This document shows positions 1 through 32,910 of a stretch of 44,508 bases of DNA, piece by piece. Location: positions 1 to 44,508 of the forward strand of contig JAFXZT010000149.1 of the NCBI GenBank assembly GCA_017541145.1, in the 5' to 3' direction. The notes below the pieces were generated by a model. The model saw only the letters and a list, made by a program, of their open reading frames with translations, had not been told where the DNA came from and made no database searches. Within the stretch, counting starts at the first letter, position 1. Each line of letters starts with the position of its first letter. Position numbers and translations under genes: made by a program. Source of the DNA: Bacteroidales bacterium. GTDB taxonomy: Bacteria; Bacteroidota; Bacteroidia; Bacteroidales; UBA3824.

Positions 1-340
1 CACGGATTTATCGACCGTGAAGGCAGGTCATATACGATATTACCCAGGGAATTACGACCGTGACCCCAGGTGAATTTTTATTTTAACACGGATTTATCGA
101 CCACGAAGGCAGGTCACATACGATATTACCCAGGGAATTACGACCGTGACCCCAGGTGAATTTTTATTTTAACACGGATTTATCGACCACGAAGGCAGGT
201 CACATACGATATTACCCAGGGAATTACAATCATAACACCGGGTGAATTGGGATTACTCCATGGGAATATTAATTATAACCTCAGGTAATTTTGAATATCC
301 GATCACGAATAACAATTTATACCTCAAGCAAAAATAATAT
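1..340. repeat. Degenerate tandem array, 43-bp period (copy 1)
   Basis: Eight repeat units lie in exact 43-bp register: the anchor CGACCGTGA or a variant begins at 12, 55, 98, 141, 184, 227, 270 and 313. The first five units alternate between two types (A: ...GAAGGCAGGTCA; B: ...GACCCCAGGTGA), giving a nearly perfect 86-bp dimer at 1, 87 and 173. The last three units are strongly diverged but keep the spacing (CAATCATAA at 227, TAATTATAA at 270, CAATTTATA at 313). A second motif, CCCAGGGAAT, recurs at 43, 129 and 215 and as CCATGGGAAT at 258. The array probably continues beyond the left edge. It holds no credible ORF and lies downstream of the last PUL gene. A related array is at 31890-32262. 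Function unknown. Confidence 0.85.
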
Positions 341-414: not shown

Positions 415-459
415 ATAAAAAAAACTGTCTGAACGCTACTTGAAACGCCAGACAGTTTT
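415..459 (-). terminator. Intrinsic terminator ending the PUL operon
   Basis: A perfect 10-bp inverted repeat (AAACTGTCTG at 422-431 and CAGACAGTTT at 449-458) encloses a 17-nt loop. On the minus strand it is followed by a run of eight T residues. It lies just past the stop of the last minus-strand glycan-binding protein gene and so marks the end of the PUL transcript. Confidence 0.85.
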
Positions 460-489
460 AAAAAATTTTAAACAATTATACAAAGATTT

Positions 490-2553
490 CTACGGTATAA
501 AGGATATTTTCTTAACAGTCAAGTTTTCTCCTTGAATTATTATAGCTCCACCCCAATTTGTATTTGTTTGTAATGAGTTATAAAAACTTTCATTTACGGT
601 AAATGAAATATAACCATCTGTAATTGCAGAAGCAGGACCATTAATATTATTACCACCGTCAAAAGCGGTATATTGACCCCATGCACCATCAAAGAATTGA
701 AGTTGCCAGAATCCACTCTCATCGTCCTCATCTTTTTTACTATGTTTCAAATCATTTACAGAAACATAAATTTTTATTGTTGACCCTACAGTAATATCTT
801 TAAACAAATCTTGAGGGAAAACAGACCAATTTACAGTCCAAATACCTAAATCTTGGGTTTGTTCCAACAATGTTACTTCCGCCAATGTTATATTAATTTT
901 TGTAGCAGAGCTTACATTAGCACTTCCATCACTAACGATAATATAGTCATTAGTAGCAACAGATTTAGTTCCAGGAATATTAATAAACATTCCATTTTTA
1001 CTTGCTACAGAATAGACCGGTATATTTATGCCAGCTATGCTAACAGAAGTTACCTTATCTAAATTACCACCTTCTACAAAAATATTACCACCCAAGATTG
1101 CTGATTTAGGAATCTTTGACAAATATGGATGCGGACATTCTTCAACTGCAATATTCCAAACTTGAGTTTCCTCTCCATTTGTTGACTTAACAAAAAGCTG
1201 CTGAGTACCATTTATATACTCAGGAACAACAAAAGAAAACGAATTATTATCTATAACTTTAAAATCTCTAACAGGTTCATCGCCAATTCTTGCATCTACA
1301 GCATAATTCAACAAATTATTGCAAGCTGTTATAACGACTTTACCACCTCCTATATACTTTTTCTCACCGTTGGTATCATAAGACCAATATGCACCGCTTA
1401 CGTCAATAGGTTTAATATTAAGGTCTGTTGTTACCTCTGTAGCATTACCTGTTACGGCTTTGATTCCTGATTTAGCCTTTTTGGGGATAATTAATGTTAT
1501 AGAATTGTTATCGTCAGCTATAGTATATTCTGATTTTTCTAATGTGTAATCTCCCAATGTCAAAGAAGTAATCAAATCAAGATCGCTACCTGTTATAGTC
1601 AATTCATCACCAAGGAAATAATAGTAGGTTATTTTACCATCATTTTCCTCAGACCGTATATATTCAATATCATTAATAACAGGTTTAACAAGAGTAATTT
1701 CTGCTTTTGTATCGACAGAAACGCCGGATGCAGTTACAACTGCAACAGCACCGTCTTTTGCCTCCGCAGGAACTTTTACTGCTATGGAAGTTGCATTTGT
1801 CGGTTCAACATCAACAACAGCATCATTGAAAACTACCTTTGTTACCAAATCAAGATCTTGTCCTGTAATAGTAATTACATCACCGGCTTTAAGATTTGTA
1901 GCTGAAACTTCAGTCGGTTTCGGCAATGTTACGGTAAGTTCGCCACATAATACCGGTTTGCCGTCTGTCAAGGTAAGGTCGCCGGTTGCTGCCTCTGCCG
2001 GAACTTTGAACTTGAGTTCTGTGTTGGTGAGACTTGTAACGTATTTGTCAAAAATTGCTTTTTGATCGTCACTTATCGGCTGAAGCGGAATTTTTACTTC
2101 TCCGATATTGATGTATGTAGCATTTGAAAGATATTTACCTGTAATTGTTACTTCGCTACCGGGACGCTGCTCTTGCGGCGAGAATGATACTACTTCTACC
2201 GGTTCTGAAAATCCGATCGGTGAAAGTGTTGTAATATCTCCGTTTGATGTATGAAGTATCAAATTGCCGGGTAATGCTGATTCCGGAACTTTTACTGTAA
2301 ATTTGCCACTTGAAATAAATGTAGGTGTAACGGTTTCGCCTCCGGGGAATTCTACGCTCTGTACGCTGCTCAGGTCAGCTCCTATGAATGTGAGTTCTCC
2401 GCCACGGGCAATCGGGCATGGACCAAAACTTTCAAGAAAGTTGTATGTCTGAGGCGCTTCATCGTCGTTTTTACACGATGTGAAGGCACTTACCCAAAAC
2501 ATCAGCATTAATAATGCCAGTGTGCTTAAATGTTTTTTGTATATTGTAAACAT
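490..2553 (-). CDS. IPT/TIG-domain surface glycan-binding lipoprotein (PUL)
   Basis: 687 residues. The N-terminus has a lipoprotein signal peptide with lipobox AFTSC (lipidated Cys27), followed by acidic KNDDE, the kind of lipoprotein export signal that sends Bacteroidota lipoproteins to the cell surface. The body is a chain of about five or six immunoglobulin-like IPT/TIG modules, recognisable by repeated phrases such as GDVITITGQDLD, GGNIFVEGGNLD and VKVPA. The last ~115 residues are a different, aromatic-rich domain (GFWQLQFFDGAWGQY, NWGGAIIIQGENLTV) that looks like a carbohydrate-binding module. By position after SusC-SusD it corresponds to a SusE/SusF-type or SGBP-type accessory protein: it should hold glycan at the outer membrane and has no catalytic role. 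The glycan is not readable from sequence; the GH130 neighbour suggests beta-mannan. ATG start at 2553; terminator at 415-459 follows. Confidence 0.85.
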   Translation of the reverse strand: MFTIYKKHLSTLALLMLMFWVSAFTSCKNDDEAPQTYNFLESFGPCPIARGGELTFIGADLSSVQSVEFPGGETVTPTFISSGKFTVKVPESALPGNLILHTSNGDITTLSPIGFSEPVEVVSFSPQEQRPGSEVTITGKYLSNATYINIGEVKIPLQPISDDQKAIFDKYVTSLTNTELKFKVPAEAATGDLTLTDGKPVLCGELTVTLPKPTEVSATNLKAGDVITITGQDLDLVTKVVFNDAVVDVEPTNATSIAVKVPAEAKDGAVAVVTASGVSVDTKAEITLVKPVINDIEYIRSEENDGKITYYYFLGDELTITGSDLDLITSLTLGDYTLEKSEYTIADDNNSITLIIPKKAKSGIKAVTGNATEVTTDLNIKPIDVSGAYWSYDTNGEKKYIGGGKVVITACNNLLNYAVDARIGDEPVRDFKVIDNNSFSFVVPEYINGTQQLFVKSTNGEETQVWNIAVEECPHPYLSKIPKSAILGGNIFVEGGNLDKVTSVSIAGINIPVYSVASKNGMFINIPGTKSVATNDYIIVSDGSANVSSATKINITLAEVTLLEQTQDLGIWTVNWSVFPQDLFKDITVGSTIKIYVSVNDLKHSKKDEDDESGFWQLQFFDGAWGQYTAFDGGNNINGPASAITDGYISFTVNESFYNSLQTNTNWGGAIIIQGENLTVKKISFIP

Positions 2554-5811: not shown

Positions 5812-8800
5812 TTAGAATTGAAGATTTAATCCTACAGTAAAAATACGCGGAGAAGGATAACGTCCTATATCAACACCTGATACATAGTTGGTAGTCTGAC
5901 TTACACCAACTTCAGGGTCAAGTCCTGTGTATTTTGTAAATGTGTAGAGATTACTGATACTTGCATAAACCTTTGCCGAATTGATTTTTGCATATTTAGT
6001 ATATTTCTGCGGAATATTGTATCCGAGAGTTACTTGACTGATTTTCAAGTAAGAGCCGTCTTCAACGTAACGGTCTGAATGATAACCACCTGTACCGGAA
6101 GTAGGAGCAGCATTACCGTTAGGGTCACCCATAGCAGCACGCGGTGTTTTGCCATCGCCGCCGGTAACGCGGATATTATATGGATCGTCTTGCCATGAGT
6201 TGCAAGCTAATTCTACCATTATAGGCTTGCCTTCCGCATCCAATTCTTTACCCGGAACTTCTACTGTACGAGGATATGCAATTGATTCATCGATAACTGA
6301 GAGTCTTGCTCTGTCTTCAACAGATTTCAACTGATTGTTCCAAGCGTCACGCATACTTGATAATTTGATTGCAGTATAATTGTAAACATCGTTGCCGTAA
6401 CTGCCGGTAAGGAAGATAGAGAATTCAAATCCTTTGTAAGTTAAGGTATTTGTAAGACCACCTGTAAAAAGCGGATTCGGGTCGCCGATGATTGTCATAT
6501 CGTAAGTATTGATAACACCGTCTGGTTTTCCTTTAGGACCGCTGATGTCTTTGTATTTTACGTCACCAACCCAAACGCCTTGTGTACGGCTAACTGCAGT
6601 ACCTTCACGACGGGGAGAGTTAAGCAAGTCGTTCATGTCTTGATAAATACCGTCGGTCTTGTAACCGTAGAACTGATACAATGCTTCGCCGCTTCTTGAA
6701 ATACAAATCGGGTCACCTTGTCCGCCCCATTGTGCATAACCGCGAATTGCATCGTTACCAGAACCGCTCAAGTTAACAAGTTCGTTTTTGTTGTGACTGA
6801 ACTGAAAGCTTGTTGTCCATTTGAAACCTTTCTTATTGATATTTGTGGTATTGATTGTGATTTCAAAACCGGTATTTTTCATTTCACCGAAGTTACCCAT
6901 TGGAGCTTGAATCTTTGTAGCATCATTACCTTCGCTACCCATATAAGTAGGAAGCTGCTGACTCATAAGCATATCCTTTGAAGTTTTGGTGTAATATTCA
7001 AATACGAATTGGAATCTGTCTTTCATGAAATTTAAGTCAAGACCGATATTCCAAGATTCTTGAGTTTCCCAAGTAACATAAGGGTTAGGAATAATAGTAG
7101 GACGATAACCTGCGCCAAGGAAATAACCGCCGCCGTAGGTTTCAAGTTTTCCTGCTGAACCCCAAGTAAATGCCGGAATATTGTCGTTACCAACCTGACC
7201 CCAACCAAGACGAAGACGTCCGCTGTTGATAAGTCCGCTCAAACTTTCAAAAAATGCTTCATCAGAGAATTTCCAAGATGCTGAGAACGAATGGAAATTA
7301 CCCCAACGATTTTCAGGACCGAAGTTTGAAGAACCGTCACGACGATATGTATAAGTTAAATTGTATTTGCCTTTGTAACCGTAGAAACCACGACCGAAGA
7401 AAGATACTCTTGAACCTGAACCAAATCCGTAAGTAATAGAAGGATCACCTGCGCCAAGTGCCGGGTTTTTGATTTCGTTTGATGACAAACCGGTATTTTT
7501 TACGCTCATGTTTTCCCATGAATATTCGCTTGTTTCCTGACCAACCATTGCTGTTAAACTATGCTCACCAAATGATTTGGTATAAGTCAAGAAGTTTTTA
7601 ACTTGCCAAAAACGGTTGTCATATTTACCGTCTTGACATGTACTCTGATTATTGAAGTCAGAGGGAGAGAAATTATATGTCGGCAAGAAATAATAAGAAT
7701 TAGTATTAGTGTTGCTCAAAGCATATTCTGTATGGAATGTAAGATCTTTGAGCAAATTGATGTCAGCATACAAAGTAACGTCGAGGTTTCTTCTTGCCAA
7801 TTTGTTGTCGATGATATTAGCTTTAGCAACCGGATTTTGGAAACTACGTCCTTCACCTGAAAGATTAGCGTAATTGCCTTCAAAATCATAAACAGGAATA
7901 TCCGGAGTCATGTAAGTAGCAATAGAAATAATACCGTCTTCGGAGTTGTTCATAACCAATTGGTCGTGAGAAGTAGCAAACGAGAAGTTGGTTCCTACTT
8001 TCATGAATTTAGTAACTTGAGCATCTACATTGGTTCTGAAATTGAAACGGTCGAAACTTGTACCGATGATAGTACCTTCTTGATTGTAATAACCGCCGGA
8101 AATATAGTATCTTACGGCATCTGTTCCGCCCGCAGCGCTCAAATTGTGAGAATGCATAAATGCAGTTCTGAAAATAGCGTCTTGCCAATCGGTACCTTTT
8201 CCGAGAAGTCTGTAATCACCAAACTCACCTGAATTTTCAGTGTTTTGAGTTTCGGTGTAAAACTCGTTACGATATTTTGCATATTCTTGCAAGTTCATAA
8301 GGTCAAGTTTTTTAGCAACGGTCTGCCAACCTGCACTACCGCTGTAATTGAATTGAGCCTTACCTTTCTTACCTTGTTTTGTGGTGATAAGTACAACACC
8401 GTTAGCTGCTCTTGAACCGTAAATTGCAGTTGCAGAAGCATCTTTCAAAATTTCCATGCTCTCGATATCATCAGGATTGAGGTTAGAAATTCCGGAGAAA
8501 GTACCAACAGCACCGTTACCCAAACTAAGACCGTAATCATTACCGCCTTTTACAACGTTTTGCATCGGAACACCGTCCACAACGTAAAGCGGCTGTGCAT
8601 TTGCAGCATTCAATGTAGAAGCACCACGGATTTGTACGTTCATACCGCCACCCGGTTGTCCTGAGTTGGCAGTTACTTGTACACCGGCAGCCTTACCTTG
8701 AAGGGCTTGGTCGATACCGGCACCAACAAAACCTTCGATGTCTTCTGCACCGACCGAAATTGAAGATCCCGAAACGTCGGATTTTTTCATTGTACCGTAA

Positions 8801-29338: not shown

Positions 29339-31771
29339 ATGAAAAACAATTTACTAATGGCAATAGGTATTGCAGCCGTTACTATAAGCCTGCATGCCTG
29401 CTCCAACAAACAAAGCGACGAGAATTTCTCCCCGACGAAACAAGAATCGTGGATGACCGACGCTACCAACAACGCGAAACAAATTATCGCGAAATTGTCT
29501 CTCAAAGAAAAACTTGCTCAATTGCAATCAGGAAGTATTTATGTAATAAAAGATGCTTCCGACTCGTTGGGAAATCTCAATTTCGATTCGCTCAAAAAAT
29601 ACTATCCCTACGGAATGGGATTAATGAATATCGATTTCGGTAACACCCCGGGCGAAAAATACTGTAGAACAGTCAACTCACTGAAAGAGTACAACAACAC
29701 TCTAAAAAATCCTATACCGATGATTTTCATAGGTGAAGGTCTTCACGGTCTTATGAGCATGGGTACTACAGTATTCCCTCAGGCAATAGCTCTCGGATGC
29801 AGTTTCGATACTACCCTACTCCGTCAAGTCTACGAAGTAACAGCCGAAGAAGCTAAAGCCAGAGGTATCAACATGCTTTTCTCCCCGATATTGGACCTCG
29901 CCCGCGAACCAAGATTCGGTCGTATCGAAGAGATGTATTCCGAAGACCCTTTCCTTTGCGGTATTTACGGCAAAACTGCTGTTGAAGCTTTTCAAAATGA
30001 AGGTAGCAACGGTCAACTGCAAATGGCTGCCACTCTCAAACATTACATGGGACACGGTCAAGTAGAAGGAGGCAGAAACGTGGCGGCTTATACCGGCTCG
30101 GCAAACGATCTCATGAACAACCATTCCGTACCTTTTGAGATGTGTGTAAAAGCCGGTGTGGCTTGCGTTATGCCTGCTTACAACGATGTATGTGAACTAC
30201 CCGTTACTATCAACGAATGGTTACTCAAAGATGTTTTAAGAAAACAATTCGGATTCAACGGTCTTGTAGTATCCGACCAAAACGCCGTAGACAGGATGTA
30301 TGATGTCAACCATATCGCATCATCTTACCAAGAAGCCGCTGAGATGTCTATCAAACGCGGTATTGACATCGATATTATCGGTCGAGACGGAACATACCAA
30401 TTGTTGGAAGAATCTGTAAAATCCGGAAGACTTTCAGAAAAGGTAATTGACAACGCTTTGCAAAATCTCTTAATCTTAAAATGGCGTTTGGGATTGTTTC
30501 AAAAGGACGAGCCTACCGACATCGCTTACATGAATAGCGTAACAAACAATCAATCTCACAAAGATTTAGCTCGTGAAACAGCAAGAAAGACTATGGTCTT
30601 ACTCAAGAACGACGGCACTTTGCCTTTGGACTCCAATTCAATAAAAAAAATCGCCGTAATTGGTCCTAATGCCAACACTCTTGACTATGGCGGATACACA
30701 GCTGAACCCGTATATCCCGGAGTTACGGTTTTCGACGGTATCAAAAAGTTCGCAGAGCCCAAAGGTATCAAAGTAAACTACGCCGAAGGTTGCCGCTTGT
30801 CCAACTCCCCTATCGGATTTTGGATCAATGATAATCAGGAACTTATCTCGGAGCAAGAAGCTACAAAGCTAATAAACGAAGCCGTAACAGTTGCTAAGAA
30901 TTCCGACATCGTGATACTTTGTATAGGCGAAAACGTTTCGTATTCCCGCGAGGCATGGGGCGAAAACCACAGAGGCGACCGCGACAATCTTGAGCTATTA
31001 GGATATCAAAACCTGTTAGCTCAGAAGATAAAAGCAACCGGCAAACCCGTTATAACACTCATGTTCGGAGGTCGTCCGCTAAATATCAGACCCGTTTTAC
31101 AAAACTCCAACTCTTTGGCACAGTGCTTTTATCTCGGTCAGGAGTGCGGTAACGCTGTTGCCGACGTACTATTCGGAAAATACAATTTCGAGGGAAAACT
31201 CTCAGTATCAATGCCACAATCAGCAGGTTCGATTCCGTGTTATTACAACATGAAACCAAACCGTTTCCGCAGCTATATCTACGAAGAGAGCGGCGACACT
31301 ATTTTCCCGTACACATTCGACACAGTCAACAACAAGTACAACTACGTAGAACACTCTTGGGAACCGCCTGTCAACCACGCAGTTTTCCCGTTCGGTTACG
31401 GACTTAGCTATACCAAATTCCAAATATCAGAGCCTACTTGCGACAATTATAAACTCTCTAAGCAAGAAACTGTTACAATAAAAACCACAGTGAAAAATAT
31501 CGGTGACAGAGAAGGCGCAGAAGTAGTACAACTCTATATTCGCGACGAGTTTGCAAGCGTAGTCCGCCCGATAAAAGAGCTTAAAGCATTTCAAAAGGTT
31601 TACTTAAAACCCGGAGAATCAAAGGATATTGAGTTCAAAATCACTCAAAACGACTTGAAATTCTACAATCAGAAGCTCGAAAAGATTTTTGAACCCGGCA
31701 ATTTCTTAGTTTATGTAGGCTCCAGCTCAAGAGACCGCGACCTCAAGATGACTCATTTTATAATGGAATAA
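29339..31771 (+). CDS. GH3 beta-glucosidase-type glycoside hydrolase, lipoprotein
   Basis: 810 residues with lipobox LHAC (Cys21); the residues after it (SNKQSDE) are less acidic than in the PUL lipoproteins, suggesting a periplasmic rather than surface location. The GH3 N-terminal barrel contains GLHGLMSMGTTVFPQAIALG, RFGRIEEMYSEDP, AATLKHYMGHG, and GLVVSDQNAV with nucleophile Asp313. The GH3 C-terminal domain (about 420-660) has TMVLLKNDGTLPL, AVIGPNA and CIGENVSYSREAWGENHRGDR. A fibronectin-III-like domain closes the protein (about 700-805, NIGDREGAEVVQLYIRD). It releases terminal beta-linked sugars, most likely glucose. It is outside the PUL but could complete glucomannan or beta-glucan breakdown. 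A terminator follows. Confidence 0.93.
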   Translation: MKNNLLMAIGIAAVTISLHACSNKQSDENFSPTKQESWMTDATNNAKQIIAKLSLKEKLAQLQSGSIYVIKDASDSLGNLNFDSLKKYYPYGMGLMNIDFGNTPGEKYCRTVNSLKEYNNTLKNPIPMIFIGEGLHGLMSMGTTVFPQAIALGCSFDTTLLRQVYEVTAEEAKARGINMLFSPILDLAREPRFGRIEEMYSEDPFLCGIYGKTAVEAFQNEGSNGQLQMAATLKHYMGHGQVEGGRNVAAYTGSANDLMNNHSVPFEMCVKAGVACVMPAYNDVCELPVTINEWLLKDVLRKQFGFNGLVVSDQNAVDRMYDVNHIASSYQEAAEMSIKRGIDIDIIGRDGTYQLLEESVKSGRLSEKVIDNALQNLLILKWRLGLFQKDEPTDIAYMNSVTNNQSHKDLARETARKTMVLLKNDGTLPLDSNSIKKIAVIGPNANTLDYGGYTAEPVYPGVTVFDGIKKFAEPKGIKVNYAEGCRLSNSPIGFWINDNQELISEQEATKLINEAVTVAKNSDIVILCIGENVSYSREAWGENHRGDRDNLELLGYQNLLAQKIKATGKPVITLMFGGRPLNIRPVLQNSNSLAQCFYLGQECGNAVADVLFGKYNFEGKLSVSMPQSAGSIPCYYNMKPNRFRSYIYEESGDTIFPYTFDTVNNKYNYVEHSWEPPVNHAVFPFGYGLSYTKFQISEPTCDNYKLSKQETVTIKTTVKNIGDREGAEVVQLYIRDEFASVVRPIKELKAFQKVYLKPGESKDIEFKITQNDLKFYNQKLEKIFEPGNFLVYVGSSSRDRDLKMTHFIME

Positions 31772-31889: not shown

Positions 31890-32262
31890 CAAAAAAAATA
31901 TTACATCGGGGCGAGATTCTGACTTTCAACCTGTTAACAATATTAATATCGGGTCACGGTTCTGACTTTTTTCTCAAGAAAATTGTTATATCAGGTTACG
32001 GTTCTGACATTTTACTTCAAGAAGATTGTCACATCGGGTAGCGGATATGACTTTTCACCTGAGGTAAATTGTCACATCCGACACCCGATATGAGTATCAA
32101 CACCGAGTAAATTATCAGAATCACCACCGGATATGAATATTGTTGACAGGTAAGATGTCAGAACAGTAACCGGATGTGACTTTTTACATCATATCAAATA
32201 TCCCAATTACGTGAAACTCCGAATTGTTTTACTGTAACAAATATCCCAATTACAATCGGATT
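31890..32262. repeat. Degenerate tandem array, 43-bp period (copy 2)
   Basis: About nine diverged units at 42-44-bp spacing. The anchor ATCGGG or its variant begins at 31905, 31948, 31990, 32033, 32076, 32120 and 32163, and AAATATCCCAATTAC recurs exactly 43 bp apart at 32196 and 32239. A companion phrase (GGTTCTGACTTTT / GGATATGACTTTT / CGATATGAGTAT) sits at fixed distance in each unit. ACCTGAGGTAAATTGTCACA near 32057 closely resembles ACCTCAGGTAATTTTGAAT at 278 in the first array, with ATCCGA at the same distance, so both belong to one family. The array fills the gap between a terminated plus-strand gene and a convergent minus-strand gene. No ORF was accepted in it. Confidence 0.8.
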
Positions 32263-32373: not shown

Positions 32374-32910
32374 CTAAACTGCTTCTCTGTTGCGGTATGC
32401 GAGCCAGATGCCGGCAAGAAATCCGAACAGATGCGCTTCCCAAGATATTGACGGATTGCTCGGCAACACGCCCCAGATAACTCCGCCGTATAGGAAAAAT
32501 ATTATTACTGAGATGATTATGGTTTTCAAACTGCGTCGGAATAATCCTATTGAAAGCAAAAATCCCAACAAGGCGAATATCACTCCCGACATCCCGATAT
32601 GATAGCTTGACCGCGCTAAGAGCCAAACTAACAATCCGTCAAGAAGGGCTGATTGTATCCATATTTTCCATGCTATTTCGCGGTACATCCAAAAAAGTAC
32701 AAGTGTTAAAACAAAGATACCGCCCGTGTTGGAAACTATATGCGACAATCCGCCATGTATAAACGGCGCAAAGATTATTCCCCACAGACCGTCAAGATGT
32801 CGGGGAAGGATTCCGAATGATGCAAATTCGCCGGGAAAGATAAAGTCTAATAAAAAACTCAGCCACATCAATACTACGATGAAGCCGGAAATTATTGCTG
32901 ATTTTAGCAT
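32374..32910 (-). CDS. Rhomboid family intramembrane serine protease
   Basis: 178 residues, about six hydrophobic segments. The catalytic dyad is visible: Ser108 in IGMSGVIFALLG and His160 in SWEAHLFGFLAGI. FIHGGLSHIVSNT (residues 51-62) is the conserved His/Asn-containing second helix. Rhomboids cleave membrane proteins within the bilayer of the inner membrane. It follows the his operon on the same strand but is separated from hisC by 144 bp with a terminator-like hairpin, so it is probably a separate unit. ATG at 32910; the long minus-strand ORF overlapping its 3' end in another frame is a shadow. Confidence 0.92.
   Translation of the reverse strand: MLKSAIISGFIVVLMWLSFLLDFIFPGEFASFGILPRHLDGLWGIIFAPFIHGGLSHIVSNTGGIFVLTLVLFWMYREIAWKIWIQSALLDGLLVWLLARSSYHIGMSGVIFALLGFLLSIGLFRRSLKTIIISVIIFFLYGGVIWGVLPSNPSISWEAHLFGFLAGIWLAYRNREAV

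What the first reader, a model, noticed from the sequence alone, without database searches (positions are those of the whole stretch)
1..340. 43-bp-phased intergenic array with alternating unit types
Eight anchors fall at 12, 55, 98, 141, 184, 227, 270 and 313, exactly 43 bp apart, even where sequence identity has mostly decayed. The newest part is an alternating A/B dimer of 86 bp. Strict spacing despite drift suggests selection on phase (43 bp is about four helical turns), as for an array of protein-binding sites, or repeated slippage with constant unit length. A sub-period of 21-22 bp is hinted at by CCCAGGGAAT and CCCCAGGTGA within one unit. There are no spacers of the CRISPR kind and no coding frame.
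Basis: partly seen in the sequence, partly recalled or inferred. Interest (0 to 1): 0.75.

Follow-up and report, generated by a model that had tools for sequence, protein, structure and literature searches.

The report
Four-turn DNA arrays beside DUF6261 genes
The repeats at the window's edge look like one of a class of short tandem DNA arrays in Bacteroidota bacteria, many of which lie upstream of genes for an unstudied protein (DUF6261) and keep a 40-43-base pitch although their sequences are mostly unrelated.

Summary
The array is real: eight 43-bp units at 1-344, the first five an A/B dimer of 86 bp, in register even where decayed. It is cut by the contig end. It is not alone. Stretches of this uncultured Bacteroidales genome hold 14 loci with arrays of period 41-43 bp or multiples, mostly unrelated in sequence. 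Seventeen of the genome's 20 DUF6261 (PF19775) matches have one, all upstream. Across the Bacteroidota, 85 of 111 testable DUF6261 genes, in 17 family labels, have a significant lag-40-44 array upstream; 7 of 579 control genes do, and 1 of 37 downstream flanks. Sequence turns over; pitch and upstream place stay; dyads are enriched. Equal G.T and A.C changes and some inverted homologous arrays favour double-stranded DNA over RNA. Best reading: each DUF6261 paralogue binds its own helically phased array, as SopB binds sopC; gene-less arrays, such as both in this window, are dispersed sites or relics. Binding is inferred, not shown. My searches found no description in print.

The parts
1..215 (.). 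Recently amplified part of the array: five 43-bp units alternating A, B, A, B, A (86-bp dimer); position 1 is the contig end
216..344 (.). Three decayed 43-bp units still in register
   Evidence: identity peak at lag 43, none of 2000 shuffles as high
421..461 (-). Inverted repeat with a T-run on the - strand, between the array and the 3' end of the neighbouring gene; terminator-like (read from the sequence, not tested)
490..2553 (-). Right-hand neighbour: 687-aa TIG-domain protein gene, its 3' end facing the array; not DUF6261
31893..32236 (.). Second 43-bp array in the window, decayed, between the 3' ends of a GH3 gene (29339-31771, +) and a rhomboid gene (32374-32910, -); its unit resembles the array upstream of DUF6261 gene L217
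   Evidence: lag-43 identity 0.58; similarity score 36 against a null maximum of 18

Best explanation
The window array is a gene-less (orphan) member of a two-part system found across the Bacteroidota: a DUF6261 gene and, upstream of it, a tandem array of 40-43 bp units (four helical turns) that often hold dyad-symmetric sites, in some arrays two per unit about two turns apart. Shown: the upstream pairing and its spread, the nearly constant pitch under sequence turnover, enrichment of dyads, and shared unit families between some orphan and gene-linked arrays. Inferred: DUF6261 binds its own array as double-stranded DNA, several copies side by side on one face of the helix, and so regulates its own gene and marks or organises further arrays elsewhere; protein and array drift together, so the recognised sequence changes while the pitch stays.
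For: 17 of 20 DUF6261 matches in this genome have an array, all upstream. Upstream lag 40-44 significant in 15 of 19 own, 17 of 27 congeneric, 23 of 28 order and 30 of 37 further loci, against 6 of 250, 1 of 250 and 0 of 79 control genes and 1 of 37 downstream flanks. Best stem significant in 21 of 54 and 12 of 30 arrays. G.T 182 and A.C 191, 98 and 104. 6 of 19 homologous array pairs match better inverted. Six of nine orphan arrays match a gene-linked array above the null maximum. Protein and array similarity correlate: Mantel r 0.66 (15 loci), 0.72 (16), 0.12 (23). No partner gene is shared beyond orthologues in 93 loci with 1.5-kb flanks.
Against: No binding experiment and no structure. No recognised DNA-binding domain: Pfam gives DUF6261 plus sub-threshold matches, NCBIfam nothing credible. 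Net charge is near neutral (median -0.4 per 100 residues, 103 proteins). 26 of 111 loci lack a significant array, and 51 of 84 arrays have no significant stem; a stricter dyad measure gave only 8 of 54. The protein-array correlation nearly vanishes at order level. The finding's own array matches no gene-linked array above chance and has no DUF6261 neighbour in the DNA held.
Confidence: 0.6

Rival explanations
1. RNA version: the array is transcribed into repeats that bind DUF6261, as in type III toxin-antitoxin systems, where an RNA antitoxin made of repeats pairs with a protein toxin.
For: Same layout, tandem repeats upstream of one protein gene (the position of the repeats in type III systems is recalled); a unit length fixed within the family; pairs that seem private to each locus.
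Against: No excess of G.T over A.C in stems (182 to 191, 98 to 104). Some homologous arrays lie inverted relative to the gene. No Rfam match in the arrays of 20 loci; the one hit lies beside an array. No toxin family among Pfam matches up to E 1.
Confidence: 0.12
2. Neutral minisatellites: replication slippage and recombination copy units of constant length without function.
For: Dimer and trimer higher-order repeats show recent amplification; array sequence turns over faster than the neighbouring gene.
Against: Does not explain the tie to one gene family, upstream, across the phylum, nor why other noncoding arrays in these genomes have scattered periods.
Confidence: 0.12
3. Mobile element: gene and array move together, the array holding the ends or target of a recombination reaction; orphan arrays are remnants.
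For: Up to 20 paralogues in a genome; orphan arrays share units with gene-linked ones; some flanks are shared between arrays; C147 keeps an array with only a gene fragment.
Against: No common element boundary found; orthologues keep their proximal DNA across species; no DUF6261 relative found in viral contigs with six narrow queries.
Confidence: 0.1

Closest known systems
F plasmid sopC (parS) bound by SopB (ParB)
   Same: Tandem array of twelve 43-bp repeats, each with an inverted repeat bound by a dimer (PMC9178275, passages seen); same pitch, dyads, one protein per array
   Different: One plasmid locus lying downstream of its genes, with a ParA partner; here the array is upstream, up to 20 pairs per genome, units hypervariable, no partner gene found, protein not recognised as ParB
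Iterons of plasmid replication initiators (recalled, not looked up)
   Same: Direct repeats phased by about two turns next to the gene of the protein that binds them
   Different: Chromosomal, many paralogues; no Rep domain in DUF6261
Type III toxin-antitoxin systems (ToxIN; PMC8860590, search listing only)
   Same: Tandem repeats plus one protein gene
   Different: There the repeats act as RNA; here the tests point to DNA
BrickBuilt MITE of Porphyromonas gingivalis (PMC4596501, abstract and passages seen)
   Same: Intergenic tandem repeats without spacers in a Bacteroidales species, many copies per genome
   Different: One 23-nt unit between a leader and a tail with inverted ends, reported in that species; here many sequences, 40-43 bp, no common ends found, a linked gene family

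Membership tests
DUF6261-linked 40-43 bp arrays (class described here) | Tandem period of 40-43 bp or its multiples | tested here: met
   43 and 86 bp at 1-344
DUF6261-linked 40-43 bp arrays (class described here) | DUF6261 gene downstream of the array | tested here: not met
   Neighbours are a TIG-protein gene and, if C108 adjoins, an ORF6N gene. The array is filed as a probable orphan on pitch, higher-order structure and kinship with array C35 (score 42), itself without the gene
ParABS centromere (sopC-like) | ParB-family protein and ParA partner gene | tested here: not met
   DUF6261 only; no shared partner in 93 loci with 1.5-kb flanks
ParABS centromere (sopC-like) | Repeats bound by the cognate protein at inverted repeats | not testable with these tools
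   Dyads enriched (33 of 84 arrays); binding needs an experiment
Type III toxin-antitoxin | Repeats act as structured RNA | tested here: not met
   G.T equals A.C in stems; some homologous arrays inverted relative to the gene; indirect tests
Type III toxin-antitoxin | Endoribonuclease toxin gene | tested here: not met
   No such family among Pfam or NCBIfam matches up to E 1
CRISPR array | Repeats separated by unique spacers | tested here: not met
   Units abut, no spacers
BrickBuilt-like MITE | Common leader and tail with terminal inverted repeats | tested here: inconclusive
   Some array flanks are shared between loci, but no common boundary was found
Iteron origin | Replication initiator binding the repeats | not testable with these tools
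   No Rep domain in DUF6261; binding and replication need experiments

The most novel reading that the evidence does not exclude
A phylum-wide family of private DNA addresses: each DUF6261 paralogue (up to 20 per genome) reads its own four-turn array at its own gene and at dispersed orphan arrays. Sequence specificity drifts freely by coevolution while the physical pitch of the protein-DNA assembly stays fixed, so the system marks, segregates or silences chromosomal places through geometry rather than through a conserved motif.
Probability: 0.4. Interest if true: 0.92.

Novelty: categorically new. Interest (0 to 1): 0.85.

Why it matters
Motif searches miss a system in which spacing rather than sequence is conserved. 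If confirmed, it gives a first role to a protein family of unknown function in the Bacteroidota and a natural set of many protein-array pairs for studying how DNA recognition coevolves. It also bears on assembly: contigs C54, C108, C188, C62, C70 and C17 of this genome begin or end in such arrays. Each pair can be tested with one purified protein and its own array.

Tried and rejected
Single-locus minisatellite: rejected, many arrays of the same pitch exist. CRISPR: rejected, no spacers. Common mobile-element boundary: sought with array flanks and with L034:200-1400; this found an interspersed repeat present in much of the genus (matches in 14 of 18 genomes), separate from the arrays, and shared flanks among some arrays only. 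RNA function: tested by wobble bias and orientation, not supported. Covariation: the excess in true register (z 5.6, none in slid registers) is partly inflated by decayed edge units; the stricter count is 26 of 47 doubly changed stem cells again Watson-Crick at unit identity >= 0.6, 14 of 31 at >= 0.7, 8 of 14 at >= 0.8, chance about one third, so suggestive only. A first dyad measure was significant in only 8 of 54 arrays; the stem measure, which allows a spacer and one mismatch, in 33 of 84. Viral carriage: a 16-mer from the array gave six single hits in viral contigs, taken as chance, and a 31-mer from another array none; six DUF6261 queries that ran found no relative there, but they use short peptide patterns and reach close relatives mainly. 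One of 50,697 phage records, an unverified 6.3-kb fecal scaffold, has a distant DUF6261 match and a faint 41-bp repeat (0.60) upstream. PHROGs and PADLOC gave nothing credible for three DUF6261 proteins. The PDB sequence search with the family profile gave weak matches only, to designed helical proteins and cytochrome b562 constructs.

Limits. The G000 stretches are not a random sample: the contigs were mostly chosen because earlier searches had hits on them. In one search the row L238 is invalid (3 bases upstream held) and was dropped, leaving 74 of 75; L254 passes by 0.01 only; the 84-bp dimer of L218 is beyond the lags used and counts as a miss; the fragment L230 was not included. In one search at most 12 candidates per genome were scored; one search took the 12 listed for G211 (one already held) and 8 for G296. 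In one search genes with lag identity under 0.5 were passed over as not significant. Start codons were chosen by script. Three of the 14 arrays counted (L043, L044, L182:17759) overlap open frames of 100 codons or more in my crude gene calls. The congener count (one noncoding array, L198) leaves out a weaker 43-bp signal at L189:123-449 (0.74).

Full report
What is there. Positions 1-344 hold eight 43-bp units. The first five alternate between two types (an 86-bp dimer); the last three have decayed but stay in register. In the decayed part identity peaks at lag 43 (0.55; shuffles 0.28, none of 2000 as high). The window is contig C54 of a 4.63-Mb, 192-contig genome and position 1 is the contig end. 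Contig C108 ends in 214 bp that are 96% identical to the array, so both may be edges of one array that the assembler could not close. A second 43-bp array lies at 31893-32236 between a GH3 and a rhomboid gene. Of 12 named loci with a relative of one window protein, nine are uncultured Bacteroidales, six of them from goat, sheep or yak; the host of this genome is inferred from them.

Not a single array. I scanned stretches of the same genome for tandem repeats (785 kb in all). Fourteen loci have arrays of 100 bp or more with period 41-43 bp or multiples, mostly unrelated in sequence. Nine of the 14 lie upstream of a DUF6261 gene; of the other five, one is cut by a contig end. Other noncoding arrays have scattered periods (18, 22, 34, 53, 66, 73, 78, 85). 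In 820 kb from five congeneric genomes (G002, G003, G008, G013, G016) TRF lists one such noncoding array (L198), and the lag scan one weaker 43-bp signal (L189). Several arrays are higher-order repeats: 86 = 2 x 43 (window, C35), 129 = 3 x 43 beside a plain 43-bp array (L040), 83 or 84 (L033, L045, L051, L182). The window array has no match at E 1e-3 in 38 other genomes.

The gene beside them. Nine arrays proved to lie upstream of paralogous genes of about 235-310 codons. All nine proteins match PF19775 (DUF6261) at E <= 7e-4, four above the curated cut-off. A profile of the nine found 20 DUF6261 matches in this genome, one a 38-codon fragment. Seventeen of the 20 have a 41-43 bp array (or multiples) in the DNA held, all 17 on the 5' side, 207-446 bp from the edge of the match. 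Of the three without, one ends with its contig 437 bp upstream and the other two are the lowest-scoring full-length matches.

How general it is. For each DUF6261 gene I took bases -900 to -20, computed the best identity over 86 bp at each lag from 15 to 70, and compared lags 40-44 with the maximum of 50 dinucleotide shuffles. Significant: 15 of 19 (own genome), 17 of 27 (congeners, after dropping L238), 23 of 28 (order). In one search, 30 of 37 further loci: 9 of 11 in the single-contig genome G211, 8 of 8 in G296, and 13 of 18 from the phylum search, among them loci of another family of the class (G321, G615) and of genomes related only at phylum level (G379, G652, G690). Together 85 of 111, in 17 family labels (labels). 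Ordinary genes tested the same way: 6 of 250 in this genome, 1 of 250 in congeners, 0 of 79 in two other genomes of the order; two of the six are themselves DUF6261 genes and one is the divergent neighbour of one. Downstream of DUF6261: 1 of 37. PF19775 was found in 32 of 295 order genomes and 11 of 395 phylum genomes, this genome counted in both, and in none of 14 control genomes. A named example is Prevotella nigrescens FDAARGOS_1486, whose annotated DUF6261 protein WP_004367630.1 matches from about the point where a 41-bp array ends.

What is conserved. Hardly the sequence. Orthologous genes in congeners share the DNA next to the start codon, while the array upstream is changed or replaced and the pitch stays 43. 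Best lags were 41 (18), 42 (24) and 43 (19) among 75 loci; outside the genus the significant ones are 41 (16) and 42 (7) there, and 40 (2), 41 (12) and 42 (16). Units tend to contain a dyad: the best stem beats shuffled units at p <= 0.05 in 21 of 54 arrays and 12 of 30 more, where about 4 of 84 are expected. Where two stems are found (28 arrays) their centres lie 16-21 bp apart, 18 of them 20-21; the two stems may not overlap, which favours large separations.

DNA or RNA. If the dyads acted as RNA hairpins, G.U pairs should be tolerated more than A.C. They are equal: 182 and 191, 98 and 104. Homologous arrays can lie in opposite orientation relative to the gene: 6 of 19 pairs scoring at least 19 match better inverted, from three contrasts; three of the six exceed the largest null score of 26, and dyads make inverted matches easier. 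In well-preserved units 26 of 47 doubly changed stem cells are Watson-Crick again (chance about one third; 14 of 31 and 8 of 14 at stricter unit identity); related units are not independent. Together these favour double-stranded DNA.

Orphans. I compared nine arrays that have no DUF6261 gene beside them with the gene-linked arrays of this genome. Six exceed the null maximum clearly: the window's second array, C180b and C189 match the array of L217; C35b those of L213 and L221; C180a that of L219; C188b that of L223. C35 is marginal (16 against 15), C55a and the finding's own array do not. The finding's array matches C35 (score 42), and its decayed units match C180b weakly (23). Its place in the class rests on pitch, higher-order structure and that kinship. 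C147, an array with only a gene fragment beside it, shows one way orphans can arise.

Mechanism. Four turns per unit, dyads, no strand bias, an array at each gene and related arrays elsewhere: this suits a protein that lines up several copies on one face of the helix. The nearest well-studied case with the same pitch is sopC of the F plasmid, twelve 43-bp repeats each with a 16-bp inverted repeat for a SopB dimer (PMC9178275, passages). I infer that DUF6261 binds its array (0.6). What it does there is open: autoregulation is the least demanding reading, marking or organising the chromosome the bolder one. Against it: no recognised DNA-binding domain, near-neutral charge, a protein-array correlation that is clear among close relatives (Mantel r 0.66 and 0.72) but not at order level (0.12), and no experiment. 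No neighbour gene is shared beyond orthologues or small groups of at most four loci in 93 loci with 1.5-kb flanks.

Novelty. I rate it categorically new because no known kind I considered meets its own defining features here, although it may work like a centromere or iteron array. 'DUF6261' occurs in one paper of the library, on streptococci (search listing only); PF19775 in none; searches on intergenic tandem repeats in Bacteroidetes, repeats of 41-43 bp and iteron-like repeats in Bacteroides listed nothing on this pairing (listings only). The library lacks most subscription papers, so a description elsewhere is possible.

Noticed in passing
L031:4908-5798 and 6016-6183 (G000:C108): Probable other neighbour of the finding's array: an ORF6N-domain gene whose start lies about 230 bp from the array, with a block of a different 43-bp repeat at the near end of the array.
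   Followed up: partly
L184:6600-7060 (G000:C146): CRISPR-like array: about 37-bp repeat with unique spacers, period 73-74 bp.
   Followed up: no
L049:16720-17113, L051:15480-16100, L050:60-190, L032:4526-4652: Interspersed palindrome (TAGAGACGTTGTGTACAACGTCTC type) near several arrays, with 18-22 bp repeats between copies in L049 and L051.
   Followed up: no
L034:200-500 and copies listed: Interspersed repeat with palindromic ends, present in much of the genus (14 of 18 genomes), separate from the arrays.
   Followed up: partly
L172:6920-7129 (G000:C189): 53-bp tandem repeat of a terminator-like hairpin.
   Followed up: no
L247:1246-1280, - strand: Rfam DUF805b RNA match (38.7 bits) in the DNA of a congeneric DUF6261 locus.
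   Followed up: no
L288:2125-2600 (NZ_CP082843.1): A 120-bp repeat lies just before the 41-bp DUF6261 array in Prevotella nigrescens.
   Followed up: no
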